Shown here piece after piece: positions 46,526-64,000 of a DNA stretch of 64,000 nucleotides. Origin of the DNA: Achromobacter pulmonis (GTDB lineage Bacteria > Pseudomonadota > Gammaproteobacteria > Burkholderiales > Burkholderiaceae_B); NCBI RefSeq assembly GCF_902859765.1, contig NZ_CADIJV010000021.1, positions 1 to 64,000 on the forward strand. The letters run 5' to 3'. Each line of letters begins with the position of its first letter. The stretch's first letter is position 1. The translations under genes were made by a program, and so were the position numbers. A model generated the notes under the pieces. The model saw only the letters and a program-made list of their open reading frames with translations. It made no database searches and was not told the DNA's origin.

Positions 46526-46587
46526 AGCGCCGCCGGCAACACCATCCCAAAGCAGAACAACCTATCCGCACGACGGAGGAGACAATC

Positions 46588-47559
46588 ATGCGCGCAATCG
46601 CAGCATGCCGCACGGCCCTGGCCGCGCTTTCCCTGGTGGCAGCCGCCGCCTCGGCCGCCCAGGACTGGCCCGCCAAACCCATCACCCTGGTGGTGCCGTA
46701 CCCGCCGGGCGGCCCCACCGATATCGTGGCCCGCGTGGTCGCGCAGGGCCTGGGCGAAGAACTGAAGCAGACTATCATCGTCGACAACCGTTCCGGCGCC
46801 GGCGGCAACATCGGCGCCGACATGGTGGCCAAGGCCACGCCCGACGGCTATACGCTGCTGCTGGCGACGACGGCCCACGCCATCAACATGTCGCTGTTCA
46901 AGAACCTGAACTACGACACCCGCAAAAGCTTCGCGCCGGTGTCGCTGCTGACCGCCGGCCCGCTGGTGATCGTGGCGCGGCCGGACTTGCCGGCCGCCAA
47001 CGTGGGCGAGTTGATCGCGCTGGCCAAATCGACGCCGGGCAAACTGACCTTCGCCTCATCGGGCAATGGCCAGTCCACGCACCTGGCGGCGGAACTGTTC
47101 GACGCCATGGCCGGCGTGCGCATGGTGCACGTGCCATATCGCGGCAGCGCGCCGGCGCTGACCGACGTCATGGGCGGCCAGGCCGATGTCATGTTCGACA
47201 CCATGCTGTCGTCGATGCCCTACGTCAAGGGCGGCAAGCTCAAGGCGCTGGCCGTGACCGGCGCCAGCCGCTCGCCGGCCGCGCCCGATGTGCCCACCGT
47301 GGCCGAGGCCGGGCTGCCCGGCTACGAAGCCACCGCCTGGAACGGGCTGCTGGCGCCCGCCGGCACGCCGGCCGCGGTGGTGCAACGCCTGAGCAGCGCC
47401 TTGCAGAACGTACTGGGCCGCCCCGACATCCAGCAGAAATTCGCGGCCCAGGGCTTTGCCTCGCAATGGAAGACACCCGCCGACACGGCGCGCTTCCTCG
47501 ATAGCGAGGTCAAGAAATGGGCCGGCGTGGTCAAGACTTCCGGCGCCACGGTCAACTGA
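46588..47559 (+). CDS. Bug/TctC-family periplasmic solute-binding protein
   Basis: This 323-residue Bug receptor has a signal peptide to about residue 24 (ASAAQ) and then the family start WPAKPITLVVPYPPGGPTDI, with the ligand loop RSGAGGNIGADM. The ATG at 46588 follows a strong GGAGGAG. It lies within the IclR operon, so it probably captures or senses the acid that the operon degrades. No TctAB membrane partner is present. Confidence 0.93.
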   Translation: MRAIAACRTALAALSLVAAAASAAQDWPAKPITLVVPYPPGGPTDIVARVVAQGLGEELKQTIIVDNRSGAGGNIGADMVAKATPDGYTLLLATTAHAINMSLFKNLNYDTRKSFAPVSLLTAGPLVIVARPDLPAANVGELIALAKSTPGKLTFASSGNGQSTHLAAELFDAMAGVRMVHVPYRGSAPALTDVMGGQADVMFDTMLSSMPYVKGGKLKALAVTGASRSPAAPDVPTVAEAGLPGYEATAWNGLLAPAGTPAAVVQRLSSALQNVLGRPDIQQKFAAQGFASQWKTPADTARFLDSEVKKWAGVVKTSGATVN

Positions 47560-47597
47560 CCCGGCGCGCCCGCCTTCATCCTATCCAGGGGAGTTCC

Positions 47598-49730: not shown

Positions 49731-49763
49731 TGCCGCCCGTATGCAAACAAAGGAGACGCACCG

Positions 49764-50525
49764 ATGTTTGAAGACCTGAAGTCCAAGACCGCGCTGGTCA
49801 CCGGCGCCTACAGCGGCCTGGGCCGCCATTTCGCGCTGCGGCTGGCCGAGGCCGGCGCGCGCGTGGCCTTGTGCGGCCGCAGGACCGAATTGGGCGAGGC
49901 GCTGGCGCAGGAGATCCGCGCCGGTGGCGGCCAGGCCTGCGTCGCGGGCATGGACGTCACCCATCCCGACAGCGTGCAGGCCGCGTTCGCGCAGGCGCAG
50001 CAGGCGCTGGGCCCGGTGGACATCGTCGTCAACAACGCCGGCATCGCCATGACGCGCCCGGCGCTGGAGATCAGCGAGGACGAATGGACCGGCCTGATCG
50101 ACGTCAACCTGAACGGCGCGTGGCGCGTGGCCCAATGCGCCGCGCGCCACTTCCACGGCCACGGCCGGCCCGGCGCCATCATCAACATCGCCTCGATCCT
50201 GGGCCAGCGCGTGGCCTCGCACGTGGCCGCCTACACCGCCGCCAAGGCCGGCCTGCTGCACCTGACCCGCGCGCTGGCGCTGGAATGGGCGCGCCATGGC
50301 ATCCGCGTGAACGCGCTGGCGCCCGGCTACATCGGCACCGACCTCAATCGCGATTTCTTCGCCACGCCCGCCGGCGAGGCCCTGGTCAAACGCATCCCGC
50401 AGCGCCGCCTGGGCACGCCGCAAGACCTGGACGGCCCCTTGCTGCTGCTGGCCTCCGACGCCTCGGCCTACATGACGGGCGCCGTCATCGACGTGGACGG
50501 CGGCCACCTGGCCAGCTCGCTCTGA
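49764..50525 (+). CDS. Short-chain dehydrogenase/reductase (LvaD-like position)
   Basis: This 253-residue classical SDR has the nucleotide motif TGAYSGLGRHFA (about residues 13-24), NNAGIAM, and the catalytic Tyr-x3-Lys in AAYTAAKAGLLHL. Its place beside the acyl-CoA dehydrogenase, APH kinase and acyl-CoA ligase parallels LvaD, the 4-oxoacyl-CoA reductase of levulinate catabolism. Its actual substrate is inferred only from context. Confidence 0.88.
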   Translation: MFEDLKSKTALVTGAYSGLGRHFALRLAEAGARVALCGRRTELGEALAQEIRAGGGQACVAGMDVTHPDSVQAAFAQAQQALGPVDIVVNNAGIAMTRPALEISEDEWTGLIDVNLNGAWRVAQCAARHFHGHGRPGAIINIASILGQRVASHVAAYTAAKAGLLHLTRALALEWARHGIRVNALAPGYIGTDLNRDFFATPAGEALVKRIPQRRLGTPQDLDGPLLLLASDASAYMTGAVIDVDGGHLASSL

Positions 50526-50553
50526 ACCTGCATCCCCATCCGGAGACCCCGCC

Positions 50554-51780
50554 ATGGATTTTTCGCTGCCCCCTGAACTGGAAGACTACCGCCAGCGCGT
50601 GCGCGCCTTCGTCGACCGCGAGCTGATTCCGCTGGAAGCCGACCGCGCCAACTACGACGCCCACGAGAACATCGACGAAGCCCTGCTGGACCGCGTGCGC
50701 GCCAAGGCCCGCGAGGCCGGCCTGTGGGCCTTGCAGATGCCGCGCCAGCGCGGCGGCCAGGGCCTGCCGATGGTGGGCCTGGCCGCCTGCTACGAAGAAA
50801 TGAACCGTTCCATCTTCGGCCCGGCCGCCTTCAACGCCGCCGCCCCCGACGACGGCAACATGCGCGTGCTGGCGCAGGTGGCGCGGCCCGACCAGCAGGA
50901 CCGCTGGCTGCAACCCATCATCGACGGCAAGGTGCGCTCGTCCTTCGTCATGACCGAACCCAATCCGGGCAGCGGCTCGGACCCATCGATGATGCGCACC
51001 ACCGCCACCCGCCAGGGCGACAAATGGCTGATCCATGGCCGCAAGTGGTTCATCACCGGCGCCGGCGCGGCGCAACACTTCATCCTGATCGCGCGCACCT
51101 CGGACGATACGCGCAAGGGCCTGTCGGCCTTTCTGTTCGACGCCGGCCAGCCCGGCTGGCGCATCGTGCGCCGCATTCCCATCATGGGCCCCGAAGAACA
51201 CGGCGGCCATTGTGAACTGGAATTCGACGGCCTGGAGATCCCCGACGAGAACCGCCTGATGGAAGTGGGCGACGGCCTCAAGCTGACGCAGATCCGCCTG
51301 GGCCCGGCGCGCCTGACGCACTGCATGCGCTGGCTGGGCCTGGCGCGGCGCGCCATGGCGGTGGCGGTGGACTACGTCGGCGAACGCAGCAGCTTCGGCC
51401 AGAAGCTGGCCGACCGCGAGGGCGTGCAGTGGCTGCTGGGCGACGCCGCCATGCAGATCGAGATCGGCCGCCTGCTCACCATGCGCGCCGCCGCGCGGCT
51501 GGACCAGGGCGACTTCGCGCGCAAGGAAATCTCCATGGCCAAGATCGTGGTGTCGGAAACCCTGCACAAGGTGGTCGACACTGCCTTGCAGCTGAACGGC
51601 GCGCGCGGCTATTCCAAGGACACACCGCTGGAATGGATCTACCGTTACGCGCGCCAGGCGCGGCTGGTGGATGGCGCCTCCGAAGTGCACAAGATGGTGT
51701 TGGCGCGCTACCTGATGGACCAGGGCGACGCGTTCTGGCATTGGGACGACGCGGACGCCCCGCGCAAGGCGCTGGTATGA
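50554..51780 (+). CDS. Acyl-CoA dehydrogenase family protein (LvaC/ACAD10-11-like)
   Basis: This 408-residue acyl-CoA dehydrogenase-fold flavoprotein has the flavin-domain motifs FVMTEPNPGSGSDPSMM and KWFITGAGAAQHF and the C-terminal LNGARGYSKDTPLEWIYR. The start MDFSLPPELEDYRQRVRAF is typical of the ACAD10/11 branch. The next gene is an APH-type kinase, the same pair fused in mammalian ACAD10/11, where it handles 4-hydroxyacyl-CoAs. It overlaps that kinase gene by four bases. Confidence 0.9.
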   Translation: MDFSLPPELEDYRQRVRAFVDRELIPLEADRANYDAHENIDEALLDRVRAKAREAGLWALQMPRQRGGQGLPMVGLAACYEEMNRSIFGPAAFNAAAPDDGNMRVLAQVARPDQQDRWLQPIIDGKVRSSFVMTEPNPGSGSDPSMMRTTATRQGDKWLIHGRKWFITGAGAAQHFILIARTSDDTRKGLSAFLFDAGQPGWRIVRRIPIMGPEEHGGHCELEFDGLEIPDENRLMEVGDGLKLTQIRLGPARLTHCMRWLGLARRAMAVAVDYVGERSSFGQKLADREGVQWLLGDAAMQIEIGRLLTMRAAARLDQGDFARKEISMAKIVVSETLHKVVDTALQLNGARGYSKDTPLEWIYRYARQARLVDGASEVHKMVLARYLMDQGDAFWHWDDADAPRKALV

Positions 51781-52841
51781 ACGCGCCCGACCATGCGCCG
51801 GACGCCGCCCCTGAATGGCTGCCCGCGCTGGCCGCCTACCTGTCGGCGCAAGGCCTGGGCAGCGCCGACGGCCTGCGCGCGCGGGCGCTGACGGGCGGCC
51901 AGTCCAACCCGACCTTCCTGCTGCAAGACGCCAGCGGCGCGCGCGTGCTGCGCAAGCAGCCGCCCGGCACGCTGCTGCCGTCCGCCCACGCCATCGACCG
52001 CGAATACCGCGTCATGGCCGCGCTGGCCGGCACCGCCGTGCCCGTGCCGGCCATGCTGCACTACTGCGCCGATCCGGCCATCATCGGCACGCCGTTCTAC
52101 CTGATGGGCTACGCCCGCGGCCGGGTCTTCATGGACCCCGCGCTACCCGGCCTGGCGCCCGCCGAACGCGCCGCGTTGTACGCCGAAACCGGCCGCGTGC
52201 TGGCCGCGCTGCATGCGGTGGAACCGGCCACCGTCGGCCTGGCGGACTACGGCAAGGCCGGCGACTACTTCGCGCGGCAGGTAGCGCGCTGGACCCGCCA
52301 GTACCGCGACACCGAGACCACCGCCATCGCCGCCATGGACGCGCTGATCGACTGGTTGCCGCAACATCTGCCGCATGACGACCAGACCCGCCTGGTGCAC
52401 GGCGACTACCGCATCGACAACCTGGTGTTCGCGCCCGACGCACCGCGCGCCATCGCGCTGCTGGACTGGGAGTTGTCCACGCTGGGTCACCCCCTGGCGG
52501 ACCTGGCCTATCACTGCATGTGCTGGCGCATCCCGCCGGCCTTGTGGCGCGGCATCGCCGGCCTGGACCTGGCGGCGCTGGGCATTCCCGACGAAGCCGC
52601 GTTCGTGCGCGCCTATTGCGACACGCGCGGCATCACGCCGCCAGCCAACTGGGATTTCTACCTGGCCTACAGCTTCTTTCGCATCGCCGCGATCCTGCAG
52701 GGCGTGTATGCCCGCGCCCGCGCCGGCAACGCCGCCGCCACGGACGCGCTGGAAATGGGCGCGCGCGTCGCGCCGCTGGCGGCGCTGGGCTGGCAGGCCG
52801 CGCAACGGGAATCCGCACGCCTGGCCGCCGCCGGCCGATAG
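51777..52841 (+). CDS. APH-family phosphotransferase (LvaA-like)
   Basis: This 354-residue kinase-like protein is of the aminoglycoside-phosphotransferase fold. The N-lobe carries LTGGQSNPTFLLQDASGARV and a Lys, the catalytic loop is LVHGDYRIDNLVF, and the Mg-binding segment is ALLDWELSTLGHPLADLAY. In the levulinate pathway the homologous LvaA phosphorylates 4-hydroxyacyl-CoA. The ATGA overlap with the dehydrogenase gene argues that the two act together. This is not an antibiotic-resistance assignment. Confidence 0.9.
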   Translation: MNAPDHAPDAAPEWLPALAAYLSAQGLGSADGLRARALTGGQSNPTFLLQDASGARVLRKQPPGTLLPSAHAIDREYRVMAALAGTAVPVPAMLHYCADPAIIGTPFYLMGYARGRVFMDPALPGLAPAERAALYAETGRVLAALHAVEPATVGLADYGKAGDYFARQVARWTRQYRDTETTAIAAMDALIDWLPQHLPHDDQTRLVHGDYRIDNLVFAPDAPRAIALLDWELSTLGHPLADLAYHCMCWRIPPALWRGIAGLDLAALGIPDEAAFVRAYCDTRGITPPANWDFYLAYSFFRIAAILQGVYARARAGNAAATDALEMGARVAPLAALGWQAAQRESARLAAAGR

Positions 52842-52850
52842 GAGCGCATC

Positions 52851-54494
52851 ATGACCGCATCGCCCCCCGACGCGCTGCCGCGCAACGCCGCCAATCACCA
52901 GCCGCTGACACCGCTGGGCTTTCTGCAATGGGCCGCGGCCGTCTACCCGGAGCGCGCCGCGCTGCTGCACGGCGACCGTAGCCAAAGCTGGCGCGCCACC
53001 TACGCGCGCTGCCGGCAGATGGCCGCGGCGCTCACCGCCTGGGGCGTGCGCCGTGGCGAGGTGGTGGCGGTGCTGGCGCCGAACACGCCGGCCCTGTACG
53101 AAGCGCATTTTGGCGTGCCGATGGCCGGCGCGGTGCTGAACGCGCTCAACACCCGGCTGGACGCGCGCACCCTGGCATTCATCCTGCAACACGGCGGTGC
53201 CACCGTGCTGCTATACGACAGCGAATACGCGCCCCTGGTGCGCGAGGTGCTGGCCCACCTGCCGACCCCGCCGCGCACCGTGCGCATCGAGGACAGCGAG
53301 TACGCCGGCCCCCACGGCGACCTGGGCGATGCGCAATACGAAGCCTGGCTCGCCGCGCAACCGCCCGACGCGCCCTGGGAAGGGCCGCGGGACGAATGGG
53401 ACAACCTCTGCCTGAACTACACCTCGGGCACCACCGGCAACCCCAAAGGCGTGCTCTATCACCATCGCGGCGCCTACCTGAACGCCAGCGGCAACGTGCT
53501 GGCCTGCGGCATGCCGCCGCACGCGGTCTACCTGTGGACCCTGCCCATGTTCCACTGCAACGGCTGGTGCTTCCCGTGGACCATGGCGGCGCTGGCCGGC
53601 ACCAACGTCTGCCTGCGGCGCGTGGAGCCGGCGGCCATCTTCGAGGCCATCCGCCGCCACCAGGTCGGCTTCTTCTGCGCCGCCCCCGTGGTGCTGAACA
53701 TGCTGGTCAACGCCCCGGCCGACGTCCGCCATCGCGCCACCCATCGCGTGCAGGCCATGACCGGCGGCGCCGCGCCGCCCGCCGCCATCATCGAAGCGAT
53801 GGAACAGCTGGGCGTGGGCGTCACGCACCTGTACGGCTTGACCGAAACCTATGGCCCGTCGATCAGCTGCGCCTGGCACGAGGAATGGGACGGCCTGCCG
53901 CTGGCCGAGCGCGCCGCGCTCAAGGCGCGCATCGGCGTGCGCAAGCTCAACGTCGAAGCGGTGCAAGTGATGGACGCCGACCTGCAACCGGTGCCGGCCG
54001 ACGGCGCCACGCTGGGCGAGATCATGCTGCGCGGCAATACGCTGATGAAGGGCTACCTGCACAACCCCGACGCCACCGCCGACGCCTTCGCCGGCGGCTG
54101 GTTCCATTCCGGCGACCTGGCCGTGGTGCATCCCGACGGCTACATCGAGATCAAGGACCGCGCCAAGGACATCATCATCTCGGGCGGCGAAAACATCTCG
54201 ACCGTGGAAATCGAAAGCGTGCTGTACCGCCACCCCGACGTGCTGGAAGCCGCCGTGGTGGCGCGGCCCGACGCGGTATGGGGCGAAACCCCATGCGCCT
54301 TCGTCACGCTGAAAGAGGGCGCGTCGCGCAGCGCCGACGACCTGATCGCCTACTGCCGCGAACACCTGGCGCGCTTCAAGACGCCGCGCACCGTGGTGTT
54401 CGGCGCCCTGCCCAAGACCTCGACCGGCAAGATCCAGAAATTCGTGCTGCGCGAGCAGGCGGCGGCATTGGGGCGCGGCGAGCCTCCCGCATGA
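52851..54494 (+). CDS. AMP-forming acyl-CoA synthetase (LvaE-like position)
   Basis: This 547-residue member of the ANL family activates a carboxylic acid to the acyl-CoA. Motifs are LNYTSGTTGNPKGVLYHHRG (P-loop), YGLTETYG, HSGDLAVVHPDGYIEIKDR and the C-terminal catalytic lysine in PKTSTGKIQK. It is the last gene of the operon. A 14-bp hairpin follows. Confidence 0.93.
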   Translation: MTASPPDALPRNAANHQPLTPLGFLQWAAAVYPERAALLHGDRSQSWRATYARCRQMAAALTAWGVRRGEVVAVLAPNTPALYEAHFGVPMAGAVLNALNTRLDARTLAFILQHGGATVLLYDSEYAPLVREVLAHLPTPPRTVRIEDSEYAGPHGDLGDAQYEAWLAAQPPDAPWEGPRDEWDNLCLNYTSGTTGNPKGVLYHHRGAYLNASGNVLACGMPPHAVYLWTLPMFHCNGWCFPWTMAALAGTNVCLRRVEPAAIFEAIRRHQVGFFCAAPVVLNMLVNAPADVRHRATHRVQAMTGGAAPPAAIIEAMEQLGVGVTHLYGLTETYGPSISCAWHEEWDGLPLAERAALKARIGVRKLNVEAVQVMDADLQPVPADGATLGEIMLRGNTLMKGYLHNPDATADAFAGGWFHSGDLAVVHPDGYIEIKDRAKDIIISGGENISTVEIESVLYRHPDVLEAAVVARPDAVWGETPCAFVTLKEGASRSADDLIAYCREHLARFKTPRTVVFGALPKTSTGKIQKFVLREQAAALGRGEPPA

Positions 54495-54497
54495 GGC

Positions 54498-54531
54498 ACG
54501 GGGCCAGGCGGCCATGCCCGCCTGGCCCCGT
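54498..54531. terminator. Strong hairpin between convergent genes
   Basis: A perfect 14-bp stem (54498-54511 with 54518-54531) has a 6-base loop. It lies right after the ligase stop and before the end of the convergent DUF1963 gene. It lacks a T-run. Confidence 0.65.
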
Positions 54532-54551
54532 AACGGCGCGGGCACAACGCG

Positions 54552-55616
54552 CTAGTCGCATTGATACGTGACACGCGCCAGATCGAACCGGCGCGCCGCG
54601 ATATCCTGTTCGCGCATCAGGACATAGTAGGCGCCGGGCTGCGGAATGCCGGCATGCGGGTCCGCGCCGATCTGCAGCACCAGCCGCCAATCGCGCGCGC
54701 CGGGCAGCAAGGCCTGCGCTGCCTGGCTCTTCCAGGCCGCATGGCCGCCGCAATCCAGGCCGTGCGACACCAGTTGGCAGGTCGCCTGCATGCCGTTCTG
54801 CAACGATTGCGGATAGCCGCCAAGCTGATGGTTGTCGCGGCCGTCCATGTCCGGCGTGCCGAACCGCGAGCGCCAATCCTGGTAGCTTTCGTAGCTATCC
54901 TCATCGTCGAACGCAAATGCATCCCAGCCTGCGTCATCGACGCCGATCGGCGTCAGCACCGTGCGCGCCGAGACCGGGGCCGCTCGGAACACGCAGGTCC
55001 ACTCGTCATCCGACAGCGAGGCCAACGCCCGCGGCACCGGCGCCCGTTGCAGCGCCGCCGCCGGCGTGGTGTCCCACAGCACCCGCCAGCCCACCGAGGC
55101 GGCGGGGGTGAAACTCTCGGCCTGCTCCAGGAAATCGTAGAACACCAGCAGCCGGCCCTCGCGCGGCAATGCGGCGTCGAATCCCGGTTCGCGCGACAGC
55201 GTGGCCAGGTCGAACTGTCCCAGGAACGTCAACGGGAAGGTCGTCTCCACCGCATCCGCCCGGGCGCGGGCATCGGCGCTGAAGCGCTCGCCTTGCGCCG
55301 GCGTCATCCACGACCGTTGCTTCTTCGACTCCGCCAGCAGGCGGTCGGCCTCCCTTCGATGCCCCGCCGCGCGCTCGGCCGCATCCGGATAGGCGGGCCG
55401 CGTCGGCCAGGCCATGCCGGGCGGCAGGTCGGGGCGCCCGCCGATCTTGCTGGCGCCCAACGGAATCGCCGCCTCGTCGGCGGTGGCGGTCGCCAGCACC
55501 AGCGCGGGACGTGCCTGCGCCAGCAAACGCGCAACTACATCGGCCGGCAGATCAATGTCGTCCAGCGATCGGCGCAGGGCGTCCAGATCCGAAGGGAGCG
55601 GGGTGATATCCATCAT
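54552..55616 (-). CDS. DUF1963/YwqG-family protein
   Basis: This 354-residue cytoplasmic protein of the DUF1963 (YwqG-like) family has no established function. Diagnostic segments are ASKIGGRPDLPPGMAWPT in the first third, TFLGQFDLATL and LLVFYDFLEQAESF in the middle, and LLQIGAD-type text (VLQIGADPHAGIPQPGAYYV) near the end. The start follows GGAGG; ATGs at 55616 and 55613 are adjacent. No neighbour explains its role. Confidence 0.85.
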   Translation of the reverse strand: MMDITPLPSDLDALRRSLDDIDLPADVVARLLAQARPALVLATATADEAAIPLGASKIGGRPDLPPGMAWPTRPAYPDAAERAAGHRREADRLLAESKKQRSWMTPAQGERFSADARARADAVETTFPLTFLGQFDLATLSREPGFDAALPREGRLLVFYDFLEQAESFTPAASVGWRVLWDTTPAAALQRAPVPRALASLSDDEWTCVFRAAPVSARTVLTPIGVDDAGWDAFAFDDEDSYESYQDWRSRFGTPDMDGRDNHQLGGYPQSLQNGMQATCQLVSHGLDCGGHAAWKSQAAQALLPGARDWRLVLQIGADPHAGIPQPGAYYVLMREQDIAARRFDLARVTYQCD

Positions 55617-55765
55617 CGGCGAATCCTCCTTGGGTGGGCCGCGCCGCGGCGCGGGCAACGGGCATGCCGTTCAACAGCCCCATTCTAGGACGGCGGCATG
55701 ACATGCCCCTTCGCCCCTCCCGGCCGGCGCATCATCGGCCACCCATACCTACCTACGTCTATCTA

Positions 55766-55851: not shown

Positions 55852-56736
55852 ATGTCCCATCACCTGTCCAGTGAAGAAGCCGCGGCCTTCGAGAAAGACG
55901 GATTCCTCATCGTCCACGAATTGTTCGACCGTGACGCGGTCGCCTCGATGCGGACCGCCATCGACACGGTCATCGCCGGCGCGCCCGACCTGCGCCAGAT
56001 CGCCGAACTCGAACCCGGCGATGCGCGCATCATCCGCCGCATCTGGCAGCCCTCGAAAAAGCACGAGGCCTTCCGCCGCATCCAGGAAGACGCGCGCCTG
56101 CTCGACCGCCTGGAATCGCTGATCGGGCCCGACATCGTGTTCCACCACAGCAAGCTCAACATGAAGGGGCCACGCATCGGCTCGCCAGTGGAATGGCACC
56201 AGGACTTCTCGTACTACCCGCACACCAATTCCAAGCTGGTGGCCTGCCTGACCTACCTGGACGACGCCACCGAGGACAACGGCTGTCTGCGGCTGCTGGC
56301 CGGTTCGCACAAGGCCAACGTCTACGACCACACCGAAGACGGCGCCTTTCGCGGCAAGGTCAGCCCCGCCAACCTGCCGTCGGGCTGCCAGGAAGTGGTG
56401 GCCGCCGGCAAGGCCGGCACGGTCGTGTTCCTGCACTGCAAAGTGCTGCACCGCTCCGACGCCAACCATTCCGACCAGTACCGCCGCGTCTTCATCCCGG
56501 CCTATCGCGCCGCCGACGCGCTGCCGATCTACTTCGGCCCGCACGCCGCGCACAACGAACCCGACGTCTATCTGCTGCGCGGCCGCCACCGCGCCGAGGT
56601 GACGCTGGAAGGCGGGCGCTACCCGCTGCCGATCGCAGCCAAGGCGTTCAACTCGCTGTACGCGCTGCAGCAGGGCGAGCACCTGCTCAAGGAAGAACTG
56701 CACACCCGCGCCAGCGGCTACGCCACCCACGCCTGA
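55852..56736 (+). CDS. Phytanoyl-CoA dioxygenase-family 2-oxoglutarate/Fe(II) oxygenase
   Basis: This 294-residue PhyH-type dioxygenase has the iron ligands His116 and Asp118 in EWHQDFSYY, the distal His at about 200 (LHCKVLHRSD) and a candidate 2-oxoglutarate-binding Arg at about 211-212 (YRRVFIPAY). Members hydroxylate, desaturate or otherwise oxidise small molecules, often in natural-product pathways. The ATG at 55852 follows AGGAG; an in-frame ATG at 55810 is less likely. It is the first gene of the operon, 27 bases before the ligase. Confidence 0.9.
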   Translation: MSHHLSSEEAAAFEKDGFLIVHELFDRDAVASMRTAIDTVIAGAPDLRQIAELEPGDARIIRRIWQPSKKHEAFRRIQEDARLLDRLESLIGPDIVFHHSKLNMKGPRIGSPVEWHQDFSYYPHTNSKLVACLTYLDDATEDNGCLRLLAGSHKANVYDHTEDGAFRGKVSPANLPSGCQEVVAAGKAGTVVFLHCKVLHRSDANHSDQYRRVFIPAYRAADALPIYFGPHAAHNEPDVYLLRGRHRAEVTLEGGRYPLPIAAKAFNSLYALQQGEHLLKEELHTRASGYATHA

Positions 56737-56763
56737 TGCGCGTCAGCGTCCAAGGAGACTGGC

Positions 56764-58005
56764 GTGAAACCGCATATCCTGGTGCTCAACCGCTGGCCGC
56801 AGCATCGCGGCGGCCCGAAGTGGGACCACGAGCTGTGCCGCTATGACGAGATCATCCCGCCGCACTGCGATGTCTCGTACCTGTGCGACGCGGAAGGCAC
56901 GATCGGACTGCCGGCCTCGGTCGATGGCGCGCGCGTGCGGGTGGCGGACGACATCGGCAACGCCGCCGAAGCGGCATCGCACGCGGCGCGCCTGGCGGCC
57001 CGCCATGGCCCCATCACGCACGTGTTCGCCGGTTCCGAATACCTGCTGGACACGGCGGCGGCGATCCGCGCGCGGCTCGGCATCGCCGGCCATACGCCCG
57101 AACAGGCTGACCGCTTCCGCGACAAGACCATCATGAAGCGCGTCCTGCGCAACGCCGGCCTGCGCGTGCCACGTTGGCACGCCTGTACGGACGCCGCCCA
57201 GCTCACCGAACAGGCCCGCGAACTGGGCTTTCCGCTGATCATCAAGCCGGTGCGTGGCGCCTCCAGCAAAGGCGTGCGGCGGATCGACTCGCCGGATGAA
57301 CTGGCCGCCTTCCTGCGCGCCACGGACCCGGCCGGCCACGAAGTCGAGGAGTTCATCGACGGCGACATCCTGCACGTCGACGGCGTCATCGACCAGGCGG
57401 GCGATTGCCCCTTCCTCTGCGTCAGCCGCTACATCTCGTCCTGCCTGGGCTTCGAGACCGGCGGCCAGCCACTGGGCTCGGTAATCCAGCGCGACACGCC
57501 GCTGGCCACGGATTGCAAGGCCTTCGCGCTGGCCTGCCTGAACGCGCTGGAACTGCGCGGCTCGGCCTTCCACCTGGAACTGTTCCACCGCGACGGCGAA
57601 CTGGTATTCCTGGAGGTGGGCGCGCGCGTGCCGGGCGCCGACGTGCCCTACACCATCCACCGCGCCTACGGCGTCAACCTGTTCCAACTGTGGGTCGAGG
57701 TGATGCTGGGCCAGCCCGCGCGCCCACGCGCGGCCGCCGCGCCGAAGGCGGCCGGCTGGATCACCTTTCCGCGGCCCCGCCCGCTGCCGCGCAAGGTGGT
57801 ATCGGCCAACTCGCTGGTCGGCGTCGTGCCCGGCGTGTATCGCGAGCTGATCCCGGCGCCCGAGCAATACCTGAAGGACACCGGCGGCGGCTACACGCAC
57901 ATGCAGGGCGGCCGCTTCCTGGTCGAAGGGGAAGACGAAAGCCAGGTGCTGGCCGCCCTGGACGCCATCAAGCAGCGCTACGTACTGAAGACCCTGCCCG
58001 CCTGA
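56764..58005 (+). CDS. ATP-grasp carboxylate-amine ligase 1
   Basis: This 413-residue ATP-grasp ligase probably makes an amide or peptide bond. ATP-binding lysines are at about 121 (FRDKTIMKRVL) and 161 (LIIKPVRGASSKG), and the metal ligands are in LELFHRDGELVFLEVGARVPG. The overall layout resembles the L-amino-acid ligase / carnosine-synthase type of ATP-grasp enzyme. It uses a GTG start (56764) with AGGAG six bases before it. It lies directly after the dioxygenase and 34 bases before DUF1611. Confidence 0.88.
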   Translation: MKPHILVLNRWPQHRGGPKWDHELCRYDEIIPPHCDVSYLCDAEGTIGLPASVDGARVRVADDIGNAAEAASHAARLAARHGPITHVFAGSEYLLDTAAAIRARLGIAGHTPEQADRFRDKTIMKRVLRNAGLRVPRWHACTDAAQLTEQARELGFPLIIKPVRGASSKGVRRIDSPDELAAFLRATDPAGHEVEEFIDGDILHVDGVIDQAGDCPFLCVSRYISSCLGFETGGQPLGSVIQRDTPLATDCKAFALACLNALELRGSAFHLELFHRDGELVFLEVGARVPGADVPYTIHRAYGVNLFQLWVEVMLGQPARPRAAAAPKAAGWITFPRPRPLPRKVVSANSLVGVVPGVYRELIPAPEQYLKDTGGGYTHMQGGRFLVEGEDESQVLAALDAIKQRYVLKTLPA

Positions 58006-58039
58006 GCGCCGCTCCGGCAACCACCTTTGGGAGATTTGA

Positions 58040-59131
58040 ATGGACACGCTTTCTCATGCTGAACTGCTTGCCAAGCCTTGCGTGGTGTTCGCCGAAGGCT
58101 GCTTCGGACTGTTCACCAGCAAGGTCGCCGCCTCGTTCCTGCGCTATCGCCCGGAAAACTGCCTGGCCGTTATCGACAGCACGCAGGCGGGCAAGCGGGT
58201 ACAGGACGTGATCGGCTGGGGCGGCGACATCCCCATCGTCAAGGACATCGAAAGCGCGCTGGCGCTCAAGCCCGAGGTGCTGGTGATCGGCAAGGGCCTG
58301 CATTCGGCGCAGTTGCCGCCGGAGTGGAAGGCGCCCATCAAGACCGCCATGCTCAACGGCCTGCACATCATCAACTGCATCCACTTCCGGCTGCGCTCCG
58401 ATCCCGACCTGGCGCGCGCCGCCGACCAGACCGGCATCACCATCTGGGAAACCAAGGAACCGGTGCCGCTGGAACTGAACAAGGCGCGCGTGCTGGAACT
58501 GTCGTGCTTCGTGGCGCATACCTGTGGCAGTGATTCCAACATCGGCAAGAAGACCACCGCCCTGGAAATCACCCGCGAAGCCACGCGCCGCGGCATCGCC
58601 ACGGGCTTCGCCGCCACCGGCCAAAGCGGCATGATGATTTCAGGCACCGGCATCGTGGTGGACTGCATCCCCAGCGACTTCGTCGCCGGCGCAGCCGAAA
58701 AAGCGGTGCTGGACGCGGCCGAGGGCAACGACTGGGTGGTGCTGGAAGGGCAGGGGTCGCTCAACCACATCGGCGCCAGCGGCATCGCCCTGGCCCTGCT
58801 GCACGGCGGCCTGCCGCATGCGCTGGTGTTCTGCCACCGCCTCGGGCTGGAACGCACCAAGGTCTGGAACACCCCGCTGCGGCCGATCCCCGAACTGATC
58901 CGCCTGAATGAGCAACTGACCGTGTTCGAACGTCCCGCCAAGGTGGTGGCCATCAGCGTCAACAGCGCCGGTTTCAGCGACGCCGACTACCGCGCGCAGG
59001 TCAAACAGCTTGAAGCAGAGACCGGCCTGCCGGTGGTGGACCCCTGCCGCGAAGGCGCCGGCATCCTGGTCGATGCGCTGCAGGCCTATCAGCGCAGCTT
59101 GCAGCAGCGCGAACAGCTGGCCGAGGCCTGA
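58040..59131 (+). CDS. DUF1611 (DgcN-like) family protein
   Basis: This 363-residue protein has the DUF1611 architecture: an N-terminal Rossmann-like domain (CVVFAEGCFGLFTSKVAA) and a C-terminal P-loop domain with GSDSNIGKKTTALEI (about residues 163-178) and VVLEGQGSLNHIG. Some members, called DgcN, act on D-glutamate and related amino acids by N-acylation. It lies only two bases before the second ATP-grasp gene. A role in preparing or modifying the amino-acid building block is inferred. Confidence 0.85.
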   Translation: MDTLSHAELLAKPCVVFAEGCFGLFTSKVAASFLRYRPENCLAVIDSTQAGKRVQDVIGWGGDIPIVKDIESALALKPEVLVIGKGLHSAQLPPEWKAPIKTAMLNGLHIINCIHFRLRSDPDLARAADQTGITIWETKEPVPLELNKARVLELSCFVAHTCGSDSNIGKKTTALEITREATRRGIATGFAATGQSGMMISGTGIVVDCIPSDFVAGAAEKAVLDAAEGNDWVVLEGQGSLNHIGASGIALALLHGGLPHALVFCHRLGLERTKVWNTPLRPIPELIRLNEQLTVFERPAKVVAISVNSAGFSDADYRAQVKQLEAETGLPVVDPCREGAGILVDALQAYQRSLQQREQLAEA

Positions 59132-59133
59132 CC

Positions 59134-60468
59134 ATGAAGGAAGCCGTGCTGCTCCTGATGCACCAGGGCAATTCCTTCACCGCCGAGCTGCATGAGCGGC
59201 TGGCCGCGCGCGGCATCGCGCTGGTCGCCATCAGCTCGCGGCCGGCGGACATGGCGGTGCTGGAGCGCAACCAGCCGCTGCTGGACGCCTGGGTGGTGGG
59301 CGCAGGCCCCGAGCTGTCCGACGCCGACGTGCGCGCGGGCGTGGCGCAACTGGCGCAGCGCGGCTACCGCTTCCTGGCCGCCATTGCCACCTTCGAAGGC
59401 TACCGCCTGTTCATGGCGGACCTGAACCACGCCTTCGGCGCGCCCGACGTGCCGCGCGTGGCGCTGGAACGGGCGCTGCACAAGCATCGCTGCCGCGAGT
59501 TCCTGCTGATGCAGGGCCTTAGCGCCGCCACCTGCCGCCTGATCCCGGCCGGCAGCGGCGCCGATGCCGCCGGCCTGGATCCGCAGCGCAAATGGTTCAT
59601 CAAGCCGGTGCGCGGCGCGGCCTCGTTCGGCTGCTTCATCCTGGAAAACCGCGACGACTTGACCGACGTGCCGGCGATGCAGGCGCAGATGCTCAAGGAC
59701 GGCAAGTTGGCGGCGATCTTCATGGGCCGCTATGACTTCTTCGCCGAGGAATACATCGAAGGCCCGGAGTTCAGCTACGAGATCGTGGCGGCGGCGGGCC
59801 GGCCGCGCGTTCTCTGCGTGCATGAAAAGGCGCGGGTCGAACGCCTGCCGCGCACCACCCTGGAAAGCATGTCGATATCGCCGCCGCTCTCGCTGCCGGT
59901 GGACACGCTGCGCGAAGGCGAACGCTTCGTGGCCGAATGCCTGACGCGCATGGGGCTGGGCGAGGGCGCCTACCACGTCGAAATGAAGTACTGGCAGGCC
60001 CGGCGGCGCTGGGAAATCATCGAGATCAACCCGCGCATGGGCGGCAGCCTGATCAACGCCAGCACCACGCGCGCCACCGGCGCATCCATCCTCGACCTGT
60101 GGCTGCGGACGCTGCTGGCGCGCGCGCCGGACGACATCGCCGCCTTCCATGCGCAGGCCGACGCCGTGGCGCAGCTCGATCGCCTGGACCGCGACGACGA
60201 CCGCCGCGCGGTCGTTTTCATCAGCAAGTACGGCAAGAAGGGGGCCACTGTGGATTCCATCGACTACGACACCAGCGGGCATTCGCCGGACCTGCTGGAA
60301 TTCCATGTCAAACCCGGCACGCGGTTGGAGGACTCCGACCGCGCCATCTGCGTCATGGACGCGCTGTGGCAGGTCGACCGCGCCGCGCTGGCGGACGCCG
60401 TTGAATCCATCGACCGCGAATCGGACGAGAACTTCCGCATCACCTATCAGGCCGCCCAGGGCGTGTGA
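59134..60468 (+). CDS. ATP-grasp ligase 2
   Basis: This 444-residue ATP-grasp enzyme is distinct from ligase 1. The N-terminal domain begins VLLLMHQGNSFTAELHERL. The ATP-binding lysine is at about 157 (WFIKPVRGAASFG), and the Mg ligands Glu297 and Asn299 are in EIIEINPRMGGSL. Its C-terminal 110 residues form an extra domain (VVFISKYGKKG to DALWQV) seen in amino-acid ligases. It starts two bases after DUF1611, which points to tight coupling. Two ligases suggest a product built from at least three acid or amine parts. Confidence 0.87.
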   Translation: MKEAVLLLMHQGNSFTAELHERLAARGIALVAISSRPADMAVLERNQPLLDAWVVGAGPELSDADVRAGVAQLAQRGYRFLAAIATFEGYRLFMADLNHAFGAPDVPRVALERALHKHRCREFLLMQGLSAATCRLIPAGSGADAAGLDPQRKWFIKPVRGAASFGCFILENRDDLTDVPAMQAQMLKDGKLAAIFMGRYDFFAEEYIEGPEFSYEIVAAAGRPRVLCVHEKARVERLPRTTLESMSISPPLSLPVDTLREGERFVAECLTRMGLGEGAYHVEMKYWQARRRWEIIEINPRMGGSLINASTTRATGASILDLWLRTLLARAPDDIAAFHAQADAVAQLDRLDRDDDRRAVVFISKYGKKGATVDSIDYDTSGHSPDLLEFHVKPGTRLEDSDRAICVMDALWQVDRAALADAVESIDRESDENFRITYQAAQGV

Positions 60469-60514
60469 CCCGCAAGCGCCATCGCACCCTCCCACCCTCG
60501 CAGAGGCACGATCC

Positions 60515-61678
60515 ATGACCGAAGCACTGCTGGCGCCGCAGGACCTGACCCATCCCGCCTTCGATGTCCACCTGGGCGGCAAGCTGGAAATCCGCGGCCG
60601 CGTCGCCATCGAGTCGCGCGAAGACCTGGCGCGCGCCTACACGCCGGGCTTTGCCTACGTGGCCGCCGCGATCCAGCGCGACCCCGCGCTGCTGGCGCGT
60701 TACACCATGCGCCAGAACACCGTGGCCATTGTCACCGACGGCACGGCGGTGTCCGGCATCGGCGACGTCGGCCCGAAGGCCGCTCTGCCGGTCATGGAGG
60801 GCAAGGCGCTGGTGTTCAAGCGCTTCGCCGGCATCAACGCGATCCCGATCTGCCTGGACACCAAGCACAGTGGCGAGATCATCGACACGGTGCGGCGCAT
60901 CGCGCCGGGCTTCGGCGCCATCATGCTGGAAGACATCTCGGCGCCGCGCTGCTTCGAGATCGAAGACGCGCTGCACCGCGAATTGCAGATTCCCGTGCTG
61001 CACGACGACCAGCATGCCACCGCGATTTCGGCCGGCGCGGCGCTGATCAACGCCCTCAAGCGCGTCGGCAAGCGGCTGGACCAGATCAAGGTGGTGATGG
61101 TGGGCGCGGGCGCCGCCGGCACCGGCTGCGCCAAGATCTTCCTGGCCCTGGGCGTGCAGCGGCTGATCGCCTGCGATCGCGCCGGCGCCATCCACCGCAA
61201 GCGCACCGACCTGAACCCGGCCAAGGCCTGGTTCGCCGCGCATACCAACCCGCTGCAGGAAAGCGGCAGCCTGGGCGAAGTCATGGCCGGCGCCGACGTA
61301 TTCCTGGGCGTCTCCGGCCCCGGCGTCATCACGGTGGCGGACGTGGCGCGCATGGCGCGCGACCCGATCCTGTTCGCGCTGGCCAACCCCACCCCCGAGA
61401 TCCTGCCCAGCGAAGTGGCCGGCCTGGCCGCCATCGTCGCCACCGGCCGCAGCGACCTGCCCAACCAGATCGACGGCGGCCTGGCGTATCCGGGACTGTT
61501 CAAGGGCATCCTGGACAGCGGCGCGCCGCGTTTCACCGATGCGATGAAGTGCGCGGCGGTCTACGCCCTGGCCGGTCTGGTCGACGCGGCGGAACTGGAC
61601 GCCGGCCGCATCATTCCCGACATCTTCGACGAACTGGTGATGCCGTCGGTGGCGGCCGCGGTGGCCGCCGCCGCGTGA
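60515..61678 (+). CDS. Short-form NAD(P)-dependent malic enzyme
   Basis: This 387-residue malic enzyme of the short bacterial type has the catalytic Tyr in LARAYTPGFAYV (about residue 42), the Lys in LPVMEGKALVFKRFAG (about 97), the metal segment IMLEDISAPRCFEIE, and the NAD(P) Rossmann motif VMVGAGAAGTGCAKIF. It would make pyruvate with NADH or NADPH, or act on a malate-like acid in the pathway. It ends the + strand operon. It could be a housekeeping MaeB-like gene caught in the cluster, but the spacing of 46 bases argues for operon membership. Confidence 0.88.
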   Translation: MTEALLAPQDLTHPAFDVHLGGKLEIRGRVAIESREDLARAYTPGFAYVAAAIQRDPALLARYTMRQNTVAIVTDGTAVSGIGDVGPKAALPVMEGKALVFKRFAGINAIPICLDTKHSGEIIDTVRRIAPGFGAIMLEDISAPRCFEIEDALHRELQIPVLHDDQHATAISAGAALINALKRVGKRLDQIKVVMVGAGAAGTGCAKIFLALGVQRLIACDRAGAIHRKRTDLNPAKAWFAAHTNPLQESGSLGEVMAGADVFLGVSGPGVITVADVARMARDPILFALANPTPEILPSEVAGLAAIVATGRSDLPNQIDGGLAYPGLFKGILDSGAPRFTDAMKCAAVYALAGLVDAAELDAGRIIPDIFDELVMPSVAAAVAAAA

Positions 61679-61732
61679 CCCTCGGCCCACCGCCGGGCTC
61701 GCTCGCACCGCCGGCACGGCCCGTGTGCGGCA

Positions 61733-62266
61733 TCATGAACGATCCAGCAGCGCGGCCCGCACCCGCGCCGGCAGGGCGTAATCCGCCGCGCAGGCCCGCG
61801 CCGGGGCGCCGCGATGGCGGCGGCCATGGTGGCGCGAGCCGGCATCGCTCAGCAACTCGACGCCGCGTACCGCCGCCATGGTGCGATTGGTCACGCCGAG
61901 CTTCTTGAACAGCATGCCGACATGCATCTTGACCGTCACCAGCTCGATGCCAAGCAGATCGGCGATGGTCTTGTTCTGATGCCCTTCGATGATGTATTGG
62001 AGGATCTCGTGCTGGCGCGACGACAGGGGAATGAAGGCGGGTTCGGCATCCGCCTCATGCGCGCCGGACCCATGGCCCGGCGCAGCGGTCCGGCCTTCCG
62101 CGTCTTCACGTGCATCGCCGGACTCGGCCGGTTCGGCCGGCGCGTTTTCATGTGTCGCATTCGTGTAGAGCTTGATTTGTCTGGCCACGTATACCTCCCA
62201 CACCGCCTTAACGAAGTTGCGTTCGAATCGCGGGCGCCGGGGCGGCGCCGGCGACGTGCTACTCAT
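61733..62266 (-). CDS. LuxR-type HTH transcriptional regulator
   Basis: This 177-residue protein has a C-terminal LuxR/GerE HTH (about residues 79-140, LSSRQHEILQYIIEGHQNKT then TVKMHVGMLFKKLGVTNRT). No receiver or autoinducer domain is seen in the short N-terminal part, which holds an acidic linker. Its ATG overlaps the stop codon of the AroA-like gene by eight bases, so the two are translationally coupled. It is the likely pathway regulator. A start further in, near IKLYTNATHE, is possible. Confidence 0.85.
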   Translation of the reverse strand: MSSTSPAPPRRPRFERNFVKAVWEVYVARQIKLYTNATHENAPAEPAESGDAREDAEGRTAAPGHGSGAHEADAEPAFIPLSSRQHEILQYIIEGHQNKTIADLLGIELVTVKMHVGMLFKKLGVTNRTMAAVRGVELLSDAGSRHHGRRHRGAPARACAADYALPARVRAALLDRS

Positions 62267-63602
62267 CGGCCGCTTCCAGGTAATACTGCCGGGTCGTGGC
62301 GCAGGACACGCCCAGGCCGCGGAACTGGTCGATGAAATCAGGAAAGGAACAGATCACATCGGCGTAGCCGTCGAGGTGGCAGGCCTCCTCGCAGCGCAGC
62401 GATGCGACGAACAACGACATGAAATTGCGATGGTCGCCACGGCTGCTGAGCGTCACGCCGCCGGCATAGCGTGGCCGTCCGCGCGTCACGAAGCCGTCGA
62501 TGTGGCCATCGACATGCCGCAGCATTTCGATGTCGGCACCCAGCTTGCGCACCTCGCCGATCATCGACTCCACCCGCGACGACTTGTGAAACCGCGTGAC
62601 CGATCCTCCGGTCACCGTGAACGTGCCGCGCACGAACAGACTCAAGGCCACCAGCGTGGGAATCACATTGGGGCCGTTGCGCACGTCGAAGGTGTAGTTG
62701 CCCTCCAGGCGCGCACTGGTGCTGTCGACGTGCAGCATGCCATCGTCGTAGCGCAGCCGCACCCCCAGCGCCTCGACGATGTCGGCGAACAGCTTTTCGC
62801 CCTGCAGCGTCTCTTCTTCGATGCCGCCGATCCGGTAGCGGCCCGGAAACAGCGTACACGCCATCAGCAAGTACGACAGCGAGGTGTAGTCGGCGTTGAT
62901 GCGGGTCTCGAACGGCTGGTACACCCCCGGCGCGACGTGGTAACGCGTGTACTCGGGGTTGACCTGCGCATCGATGCCGCAACAGCGCAGCGTTTCCACC
63001 GTCTGCGCCAGGTAGGACTGCGACAGCACTGGCGGCGTCACCTCCAGGCTGATGCCTTGCCGCGTCAGCGGCGCCGCCATCAGAATCGCGGTGATGAACT
63101 GCGAGCTGATGTCGCCCGCCAGCCGGCAGTGCTTGCCGCTTAGCGACGCGCCCCAGTTGATCACCGGCGCCTTGCCCTCATCGCCCAGGCAGGCGAAGTT
63201 CGCCCCCAGGTGGCGCAGGCCATCCAGCAGCGGTTGCATCACGCGGCGGCGCAGGGTCGCGTCGCCGGTCAGGATGGTGGGGGTCGCCTTCATGCAGCTC
63301 AACGCCATCATGGTGCGGAACACCAGGCCGGATCCCTTGGCGTCGATGACCTCGATGCTCGACGCGAAGCGGCCGCCGGTGCCTGTGATGAACAGCGCCC
63401 CGGCGGCCTCTTCGATCTTCGCGCCGAGTTGGCCGCAGGCGATCTTCATGGTCTCGGTCTCGGTGCAGCGCAGATCGTTGCGGATGATGGACGTGCCGTC
63501 CGCCAGCGTGGCGGCGAGGATGGCGCGTTGCGTTTCGGGCTTGGACGCCGGAACATTCATCCGGGTGCCCAGTTCCTTGATCGGTTCGACGCGTAGATAC
63601 AT
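62259..63602 (-). CDS. EPSP synthase/MurA-fold protein with altered active site
   Basis: This 447-residue protein has the inside-out alpha/beta fold of AroA and MurA. By eye it aligns better with AroA: Lys21/Arg26 (PASKPETQRA), Arg near 120 (GDATLRRRV), the SSQ motif (GDISSQFITAILMA, 166-168) and DHR (390-392) are kept. The acidic Asp of PDAAM/TDMQ becomes Asn312 (GPNVIPTLV). The KETDR-type segment reads FHKSSR and lacks its acid. The C-terminal Lys is Cys418 (ADVICSFPDF). Housekeeping AroA keeps all of these. It is probably an enolpyruvyl transferase on a new acceptor, or a new reaction. Its start follows GGAGAA. Confidence 0.85.
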   Translation of the reverse strand: MYLRVEPIKELGTRMNVPASKPETQRAILAATLADGTSIIRNDLRCTETETMKIACGQLGAKIEEAAGALFITGTGGRFASSIEVIDAKGSGLVFRTMMALSCMKATPTILTGDATLRRRVMQPLLDGLRHLGANFACLGDEGKAPVINWGASLSGKHCRLAGDISSQFITAILMAAPLTRQGISLEVTPPVLSQSYLAQTVETLRCCGIDAQVNPEYTRYHVAPGVYQPFETRINADYTSLSYLLMACTLFPGRYRIGGIEEETLQGEKLFADIVEALGVRLRYDDGMLHVDSTSARLEGNYTFDVRNGPNVIPTLVALSLFVRGTFTVTGGSVTRFHKSSRVESMIGEVRKLGADIEMLRHVDGHIDGFVTRGRPRYAGGVTLSSRGDHRNFMSLFVASLRCEEACHLDGYADVICSFPDFIDQFRGLGVSCATTRQYYLEAADE

Positions 63603-63732
63603 GCTTTCTCCACGTAAGTTGAAGGCTGACAGGCCCCCGCGGGAACAGCGCCCCGCGCGCGCGGGCCGACACCGCCGGCCCCGCGGCCGCGCCTGCCGGG
63701 GCGCGCCGCTCGGGGCCCGGCCAGGCGCCTTA

Positions 63733-64000
63733 TCAGGCGGCCGCCTTTTCGGCCGGCCGCTGCACCGTGTCCTCGTAGATTTCGCGGAAGAACATCGCCA
63801 GGATGGCCTGGACGTCGTCGATGTACTTGAAGACGGCGTTGTAGTCGTCTTCGCTGAGAATCAGCTGGTTCAGGATCTTCCACATCTCCATCGAATGGTC
63901 GTCGCGCGTATCGACCGTCAGATGGGCTTCCTGGCCCTTGACCATGTCATGGCCCAGCGTGGTGCGCAGGTTCTTGACGATGTCGGGCTGCAGCTTGGCC
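63733..64000 (-). CDS. Heme-oxygenase-like / iron-containing redox protein (partial)
   Basis: This is the C-terminal 88 residues of a gene that runs beyond the window edge. It is helical and includes KGQEAHLTVDTRDDHSMEM, which resembles the His/Asp metal-binding helix of heme-oxygenase-like diiron enzymes (SznF, UndA, CADD type), then LILSEDDYNAVFKYIDDVQA. Such enzymes oxidise amines or fatty acids in natural-product pathways. The assignment is tentative because the rest is missing. It lies 130 bases upstream of the AroA-like gene on the same strand. Confidence 0.45.
   Translation of the reverse strand, partial: AKLQPDIVKNLRTTLGHDMVKGQEAHLTVDTRDDHSMEMWKILNQLILSEDDYNAVFKYIDDVQAILAMFFREIYEDTVQRPAEKAAA

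What the first reader, a model, noticed from the sequence alone, without database searches (positions are those of the whole stretch)
55852..64000. Candidate new biosynthetic cluster: dioxygenase, two ATP-grasp ligases, DUF1611, malic enzyme, AroA-fold enzyme, heme-oxygenase-like protein and LuxR regulator
Two convergent units (+ 55852-61678 and - 61733-64000 onward) bring together enzyme types that rarely meet except in small-molecule assembly: a PhyH oxygenase, two different amide-bond-forming ligases, a DgcN-like DUF1611 protein, a source of pyruvate or reducing power, an enolpyruvyl-transferase fold and a possible diiron oxygenase. No NRPS, PKS or peptide precursor is present. The likely product is a small amide-linked amino-acid derivative, perhaps carrying an enolpyruvyl group. 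I do not recognise a described pathway with this set. Genes beyond 64000 (transporter, further tailoring) are not visible.
Basis: partly seen in the sequence, partly recalled or inferred. Interest (0 to 1): 0.88.

Follow-up and report, generated by a model that had tools for sequence, protein, structure and literature searches.

The report
Gene cluster for modified small peptide
A compact, horizontally spread set of eight genes that looks built to make and chemically alter a very short peptide, related to the plant toxin mangotoxin but carrying an unusual offshoot of the glyphosate-target enzyme whose usual catalytic residues have been swapped.

Summary
The gene set is real and at the stated coordinates: PhyH, ATP-grasp, DUF1611, ATP-grasp, malic enzyme (+) and LuxR, AroA-fold protein, diiron heme-oxygenase-like oxidase or HDO (-, running past 64000). 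It is a co-inherited accessory unit. All eight genes recur in Burkholderia singularis and B. multivorans, six were seen in Burkholderia sp. TSV86 before its contig ends, and a diverged operon in another family of the order keeps six. Three congeners inspected lack the eight genes at this locus. The HDO is homologous to MboA, the mangotoxin acetylenase, with every iron ligand and the catalytic Tyr kept but the arginine-binding residues changed. The two ATP-grasp ligases belong to lineages that accompany such HDOs. I read it as a ligase/HDO pathway for a short desaturated peptide, in which the other enzymes supply or cap an unusual residue. The malic enzyme has matching replacements. Product and substrates are unknown. 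New variant of a known kind, with one possibly new enzyme.

The parts
55852..56736 (+). A: PhyH-family Fe(II)/2-oxoglutarate dioxygenase, 294 aa
   Evidence: PF05721 E 1.3e-34; WHQD iron motif; orthologues 74-75% in two Burkholderia, 50% in L071
56764..58005 (+). B: ATP-grasp ligase 1, 413 aa
   Evidence: PF02222/PF02655/PF13535; L-amino acid ligase BL00235 E 6e-14; nearest to the third ligase of the B. stagnalis-type cluster and the second ligase of P. phymatum
58040..59131 (+). C: DUF1611 protein, DgcN-like, with a P-loop, 363 aa
   Evidence: PF07755 E 8.8e-60; DgcN model 197.5 bits against a cut-off of 480; P-loop GSDSNIGKKT
59134..60468 (+). D: ATP-grasp ligase 2, 444 aa
   Evidence: PF13535 E 2.2e-14; BL00235 E 2.1e-13; nearest to the first ligase of the B. 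stagnalis-type cluster
60515..61678 (+). E: short malic enzyme with altered motifs, 387 aa
   Evidence: PF00390/PF03949; HDDQHATA and PNQIDGG in 4 of 4 cluster copies against HDDQHGTA and PNQVNN in the genome's housekeeping copy
61733..62266 (-). F: LuxR-type HTH regulator, 177 aa, overlaps G by 8 nt
   Evidence: PF00196 E 1.7e-15
62259..63602 (-). G: EPSP-synthase-fold protein of a divergent clade, 447 aa
   Evidence: PF00275 E 1.7e-67; D313N, K340H, E341K, K411C, N94G, S23P in 6 of 6 members
63733..64000 (-). H: heme-oxygenase-like diiron oxidase (HDO), continues to contig position 64485
   Evidence: PF14518; MboA 9ypi E 5e-15 alone and 4.5e-23 by profile, six iron ligands aligned

Best explanation
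The unit is a mobile biosynthetic cluster of the ligase/HDO kind. Inferred order of events: G, E, A and C make or protect a non-proteinogenic amino acid. E oxidatively decarboxylates a malate analogue to a 2-oxo acid, and A hydroxylates; the diverged cluster L071 has a HisC-like aminotransferase but no malic enzyme in the stretch fetched. C adds an acyl cap or otherwise activates a carboxylate or amine using its P-loop. G handles an anionic, probably phosphorylated or PEP-like ligand, but not by the EPSP-synthase route. The two ATP-grasp ligases B and D then build a di- or tripeptide. H binds the peptide through its C-terminal carboxylate at one iron and desaturates the C-beta/C-gamma bond of the last residue, whose side chain is not arginine. 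With no dedicated reductase beside it, H more likely stops at the alkene. The EmrB-like transporter exports the product; F regulates. Shown: gene content, co-inheritance, family membership, residue conservation and replacement. Inferred: every reaction, the order of steps, and the product.
For: The set of eight recurs at other loci, six of the eight in L071. HDO homologous to MboA with E86, H89, D90, E143, H172, D176, H181 and base Y82 aligned, and N57/D61/D139 replaced by S/Q/N (positions counted by hand on the alignments; residue roles from PMC13185094). The five AroA-type HDOs form one group, support 94/80, some long branches. Of 53 HDO loci, 3 are of this type, 46 have all three ligases of the other type, and 4 are partial: 3 end at contig ends (L018, L042, L050), while L049 has a truncated first ligase and no match to the other two in the following 9 kb. 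B and D belong to ligase lineages seen beside such HDOs. Patchy: AroA-like clade in 1 of 43 genomes of the genus, own included, 3 of 399 of the order, 1 of 398 of a phylum sample. Three congeners lack A-H at the same locus.
Against: No reaction is tested. The mangotoxin redox partner MboB and the deiminase MboE have no counterpart among the ten genes scanned. The function of C rests on a distant model below its cut-off. The wider relatives carry three ligases, this has two. E was not found in L071, so it is not essential to the core. G323 has the AroA-like protein in a wholly different gene context, so its activity need not be tied to peptide ligation.
Confidence: 0.68

Rival explanations
1. 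The product carries an enolpyruvyl (carboxyvinyl) group put on by G.
For: G has the EPSP-synthase fold family and keeps K22, R27, R124, S169, S170, Q171, S197, Y200, R344 and R386, so an anionic ligand site probably persists. NikO/PolA-type enolpyruvyl transferases occur in other pathways (recalled).
Against: D313, E341 and K411, central to enolpyruvyl transfer (roles recalled), are N, K and C in 6 of 6 members; N94 and K340 are replaced too.
Confidence: 0.12
2. G is a self-resistance copy of AroA (and E perhaps of malic enzyme), so the product would be an EPSP-synthase inhibitor.
For: Clusters often carry a resistant copy of the target (recalled); the genome has a normal AroA as well.
Against: A resistance copy must remain active; the catalytic residues are replaced in all six copies, and the replacements persist although members are only 45-52% identical to the window's in G323 and G295.
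Confidence: 0.05
3. A catabolic island for D-amino acids or unusual dicarboxylates: DgcN-like C, malic enzyme E, PhyH A, with transport by the MFS protein.
For: DgcN is the only curated NCBIfam name matched by C, and dgcN is described as the key gene of a racemisation route for acidic D-amino acids (PMC12363236, passages only).
Against: Two ligases and an MboA-like HDO have no place in it; no DgcA-type racemase among the genes scanned in the unit (an MR_MLE enzyme in L010 is nearer to talarate/galactarate dehydratase); C is far below the DgcN cut-off.
Confidence: 0.08
4. H makes the full alkyne as MboA does, using a host flavin/iron-sulfur reductase encoded elsewhere.
For: Same ligand set, Asp90 and Tyr82 as MboA. 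L071 keeps a 2Fe-2S protein and an FMN reductase next to H, and L010 has a flavin reductase near H.
Against: In mangotoxin synthesis MboB could not be replaced by chemical reductants or mediators (PMC13185094), and no such gene was found in this unit.
Confidence: 0.2

Closest known systems
Mangotoxin operon mboABCDEF (PMC13185094; producer Pseudomonas syringae, recalled)
   Same: MboA-homologous HDO plus two ATP-grasp ligases and no NRPS; iron ligands and Tyr82 kept
   Different: No MboB reductase or MboE deiminase counterpart found; arginine-binding residues replaced; adds PhyH, DUF1611, malic enzyme and AroA-fold protein
HDO + 2Fe-2S + three ATP-grasp clusters (Pseudomonas, Burkholderiaceae, Streptomyces, cyanobacteria and others); product unknown to me
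   Same: HDO 42-48% identical to the window's; two of the three ligases are nearest to B and D
   Different: Third ligase and 2Fe-2S protein absent from the window unit; within the loci held (at most about 20.7 kb) none of the 46 with all three ligases matched the AroA-like protein, DUF1611, PhyH or malic enzyme
Operons predicted in 2010 with an HDO-cupin protein, one or two ATP-grasp ligases and a Rieske 2Fe-2S protein (PMC2922099, passages only)
   Same: HDO and stand-alone peptide ligases
   Different: HDO fused to a cupin; no AroA-like protein named (no EPSP or malic match in the text)
EPSP synthase AroA (E. coli)
   Same: Family and most phosphate- and carboxylate-binding residues; about 28% identity
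   Different: D313N, K340H, E341K, K411C, N94G, S23P in all six clade members
DgcN (DUF1611, annotated N-acetyltransferase)
   Same: Two-domain DUF1611 architecture
   Different: 197.5 bits against the 480-bit cut-off; no DgcA partner found in the unit
Paraburkholderia phymatum pBPHY02 HDO + two ATP-grasp genes (L009)
   Same: Same three-gene core; its second ligase is 33% identical to B
   Different: Lies among nif/nod genes; HDO keeps the MboA N57 and D61 equivalents; no tailoring genes alongside in the stretch shown

Membership tests
HDO (heme-oxygenase-like diiron oxidases), MboA-like | Three His and three Glu/Asp iron ligands | tested here: met
   E86, H89, E143, H172, D176, H181 all aligned
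HDO (heme-oxygenase-like diiron oxidases), MboA-like | Desaturase or acetylenase activity on a peptide | not testable with these tools
   Tyr82 and Asp90 equivalents present; activity needs an assay
Mangotoxin cluster | MboB-like flavin/2Fe-2S reductase in the cluster | tested here: not met
   None among the ten genes of contig 55710-67223 that were scanned
Mangotoxin cluster | Arginine-specific pocket N57/D61/D139 in the HDO | tested here: not met
   S/Q/N in the window (counted by hand)
Mangotoxin cluster | Two ATP-grasp ligase genes | tested here: met
   comparison with the MboC and MboD sequences not done, peptide-ligase activity not tested
EPSP synthase (AroA) | Catalytic D313, E341 and K411 | tested here: not met
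   N, K and C in 6 of 6
EPSP synthase (AroA) | Score above the curated aroA cut-off | tested here: not met
   263.4 bits against 287.25 in the window; the G323 member just passes, 287.8
DgcN | Score above the curated cut-off | tested here: not met
   197.5 against 480 bits
Malic enzyme | Asn pair in PNQxNN, held to bind malate (role recalled) | tested here: not met
   PNQIDGG in 4 of 4
Malic enzyme | YTPG, MEGK, LEDI and HDDQH motifs (catalytic and metal roles recalled) | tested here: met
   all present in the window copy; the Burkholderia copies read MEGKS where the window reads MEGKA
PhyH dioxygenase | HxD iron motif | tested here: met
   WHQD in window, L012 and L071

The most novel reading that the evidence does not exclude
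G founds a new enzyme activity on the EPSP-synthase fold: it still binds a phosphate- and carboxylate-bearing ligand but, with Asn, Lys and Cys where the transferase acid/base groups were, it catalyses something other than enolpyruvyl transfer (for instance a Lys-assisted carbon-carbon bond formation with PEP, or an elimination) to make an unknown amino acid, which two stand-alone ligases and an HDO then turn into a desaturated small peptide.
Probability: 0.4. Interest if true: 0.82.

Novelty: new variant of a known kind. Interest (0 to 1): 0.6.

Why it matters
HDO/ATP-grasp clusters are a recently recognised way to make short modified peptides without NRPS machinery, and few have been worked out. 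This one is compact, its enzymes belong to families that are usually soluble, and it adds a clade of the EPSP-synthase fold that has lost the textbook catalytic residues. Working it out could reveal both a new peptide scaffold and a new reaction on the fold that glyphosate targets, and it would correct automatic annotation of such genes as aroA.

Tried and rejected
Literature: searches for the gene combination in the held PMC library showed no paper describing this set (3 papers, all listed; 91 papers, 25 listed; none). Searches for DgcN/DUF1611 gave nothing on biosynthesis: one search was spoiled by unrelated 'DGCNN' papers (574 papers, 25 listed); two searches gave two papers each. A short look at Dickeya, prompted by one DUF1611 mention, led nowhere. 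One search, for residue roles in EPSP synthase, gave one unsuitable paper (listing only), so those roles are recalled. PMC13108848 was seen in passages only.

Structure: AlphaFold2 models of G and C from four-sequence alignments were poor (mean pLDDT 53.7 and 52.9); no fold search was run on them and nothing is built on them.

Self-resistance AroA and enolpyruvyl transfer were marked down because of the catalytic-residue replacements. A plasmid search with G showed no clade member: 63 records matched, 20 listed, best identity listed 29.3%. No tRNA was found in contig 50000-69999. Promoter and terminator scans were at chance level. The 4-kb insert of the B. singularis unit (MR_MLE, EamA, Lipocalin_5, LysR) was not counted as core; only its Lipocalin_5 protein was compared with L073, just beyond the L071 operon (45% identity).

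Limits: the genome-contig scan is pattern-based and could miss diverged HDOs; the paper's list of at least 25 HDO/ATP-grasp clusters is in supplementary files that I could not open, so this cluster may be among them.

Full report
What is there. The window is the first 64,000 bases of a 100,963-base contig of a 5.67-Mb genome. ORF lists and family scans confirm all eight genes named in the finding. The plus-strand genes are closely spaced (gaps of 27, 34, 2 and 46 nt). On the minus strand F overlaps G by 8 nt and H lies 130 nt upstream of G; the two units converge with a 54-nt gap. H runs to contig position 64485. Next come an EmrB-like MFS transporter and a GntR/FCD regulator.

It is one unit, and it moves. 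A degenerate-pattern scan of a collection of 84,980 species with an HDO alignment gave 53 loci. Three, all Burkholderia, also match the AroA-like protein, DUF1611 and malic enzyme. B. singularis has all eight (A 74, B 62, C 83, D 65, E 76, F 47 over 129 aa, G 73, H 86% identity). B. multivorans WS-FJ9 has all eight plus a 65% identical MFS gene. Burkholderia sp. TSV86 shows C-H before its contig ends. The loci differ: near gyrB in B. singularis, next to G6PD and cytochrome bd genes in B. multivorans, and after a DUF1963 gene in the window. A profile of the AroA-like protein then matched at E <= 1e-90 in 3 of 399 genomes of the order, own included, 1 of 398 of a phylum sample (own), 1 of 43 genomes of the genus (own) and 1 of 43 of G295's family (G295 itself). 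These samples overlap in part. Ligase D alone was found in 1 of 200 genomes of the family, own. G295 carries a diverged single operon: DUF1611 50%, AroA-like 52%, PhyH 50%, a HisC-like aminotransferase, ligases 38 and 37%, HDO 55%, 2Fe-2S, FMN reductase, luciferase-like protein, MFS. No malic enzyme or LuxR match was found in the 20 kb searched there. In G323 only the AroA-like protein matched in the 18 kb searched, in another setting.

Borders. In congener G957 the sequence matching window 46376-55709 is followed after about 419 bp by that matching 67224-70246; in G966 the matches break at the same two points with 3.4 kb of other DNA between; G981 has the MFS/GntR stretch at 89% but nothing matching A-H in the 18 kb taken. 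So A-H is accessory at this locus, and the MFS/GntR pair may be older than the unit in this genus, although B. multivorans also keeps an MFS gene next to H. G+C is 68.0% inside, 70.2% to the left and 63.8% to the right. A 14-bp G+C-rich repeat lies 57 and 71 bp outside the two borders; 1 of 293 random pairs of stretches of the contig share a word that long. It lies in flanks that congeners share, so it need not be a trace of insertion.

The oxidase. The closest solved protein to H is MboA, E 5e-15 alone and 4.5e-23 by profile. According to PMC13185094 (main text read from abstract to discussion; passages), MboA desaturates the C-terminal arginine of Leu-Ala-Arg, made by ATP-grasp ligases MboC and MboD, to an alkyne, and needs its reductase MboB for the second step. 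Converting chain to paper numbering (minus 25), counted by hand on two alignments, the window protein keeps E86, H89, D90, E143, H172, D176, H181 and Tyr82, but has S, Q and N for the guanidinium-binding N57, D61 and D139. In a tree of 59 HDOs the five AroA-type HDOs form one group, support 94/80; some branches are long and the root is arbitrary. Of the other 50 loci, 46 have all three ligases of the B. stagnalis type, three end at contig ends, and L049 has a truncated first ligase without the other two in the following 9 kb. A 2Fe-2S gene was matched in 48 of the 53 loci, but not in the three Burkholderia units or the window unit.

The AroA-fold protein. It is 72-73 and 68% identical in Burkholderia, 52% in G295 and 45% in G323. 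Aligned with E. coli AroA, all six members share S23P, N94G, D313N, K340H, E341K and K411C, and keep K22, R27, R124, S169, S170, Q171, S197, Y200, R344, H385 and R386. The window genome, G295, B. singularis and G323 each have a separate canonical AroA with D313, K340, E341 and K411; in B. multivorans two AroA fragments together show the same residues; TSV86 was not examined. The roles of these residues in EPSP synthase are recalled. I conclude that this clade is not EPSP synthase and not a resistance copy, and that it probably binds an anionic ligand.

The malic enzyme. All four cluster copies read HDDQHATA and PNQIDGG, where the genome's own housekeeping copy reads HDDQHGTA and PNQVNN and the solved enzymes 5cee and 2a9f read HDDQHGTA and NN. 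A changed substrate pocket is inferred; the role of the Asn pair is recalled.

DUF1611 and the ligases. C matches DgcN but far below the cut-off. Its P-loop GSDSNIGKKT resembles the GTDxxVGKT loop of BioD (recalled), and the L071 copy has a weak bioD match below the cut-off. D is nearest to ligase a (30% over 451) and B to ligase c (38% over 265) of the B. stagnalis-type cluster; B is also 33% identical to the second P. phymatum ligase. The HDO of P. phymatum has the MboA-like N57 and D61 (by eye).

Verdict. The evidence supports a ligase/HDO cluster making a short modified peptide, with dedicated precursor enzymes. The reaction sequence and the product are inferences. HDO plus ATP-grasp operons as such are known: predicted in 2010 (PMC2922099, passages) and counted as at least 25 kinds in 2026 (PMC13185094). 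The novelty lies in this combination and in the AroA-like clade. No paper describing this set was seen in the searches (25 of 91 listed), and the supplementary list of clusters in PMC13185094 was not open to me.

Noticed in passing
L009:9893-13143 (Paraburkholderia phymatum pBPHY02): An MboA-like HDO and two ATP-grasp ligases sit between nif and nod genes on a symbiosis plasmid; the HDO keeps the MboA arginine-binding N57 and D61 equivalents, so a mangotoxin-like product in a nodule symbiont is possible.
   Followed up: partly
L013-L062: A widespread cluster of HDO, mostly with a 2Fe-2S protein, and three ATP-grasp ligases in Pseudomonas, Burkholderiaceae, Streptomyces, cyanobacteria and Fluviispira, mostly in the same gene order (L051 differs); product unknown to me.
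   Followed up: partly
L072:7500-8819: An AroA-like protein with the same catalytic replacements scores just above NCBI's curated aroA cut-off (287.8 against 287.25), so such genes may be annotated as aroA.
   Followed up: yes
L012/L093 (B. multivorans WS-FJ9), PhyH gene: The PhyH match is split over two frames near its start: a frameshift or a sequencing error.
   Followed up: no
L003:9486-18248 (contig 73486-82248): A 2920-aa filamentous-haemagglutinin-like exoprotein with a TPS secretion domain lies about 6 kb beyond the cluster.
   Followed up: no
L073:3741-4418 and L010:11532-12308: A Lipocalin_5 protein occurs next to both the G295 operon and the B. singularis unit (45% identity); it may be an accessory part or coincidence.
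   Followed up: partly
55639-55652 and contig 67294-67307: A 14-bp G+C-rich direct repeat just outside both borders of the accessory stretch.
   Followed up: partly
L116, 419-bp gap between the flanks in congener G957: The gap seems to hold the end of an unrelated gene, so the locus is a variable spot rather than a clean empty site (read by eye).
   Followed up: no
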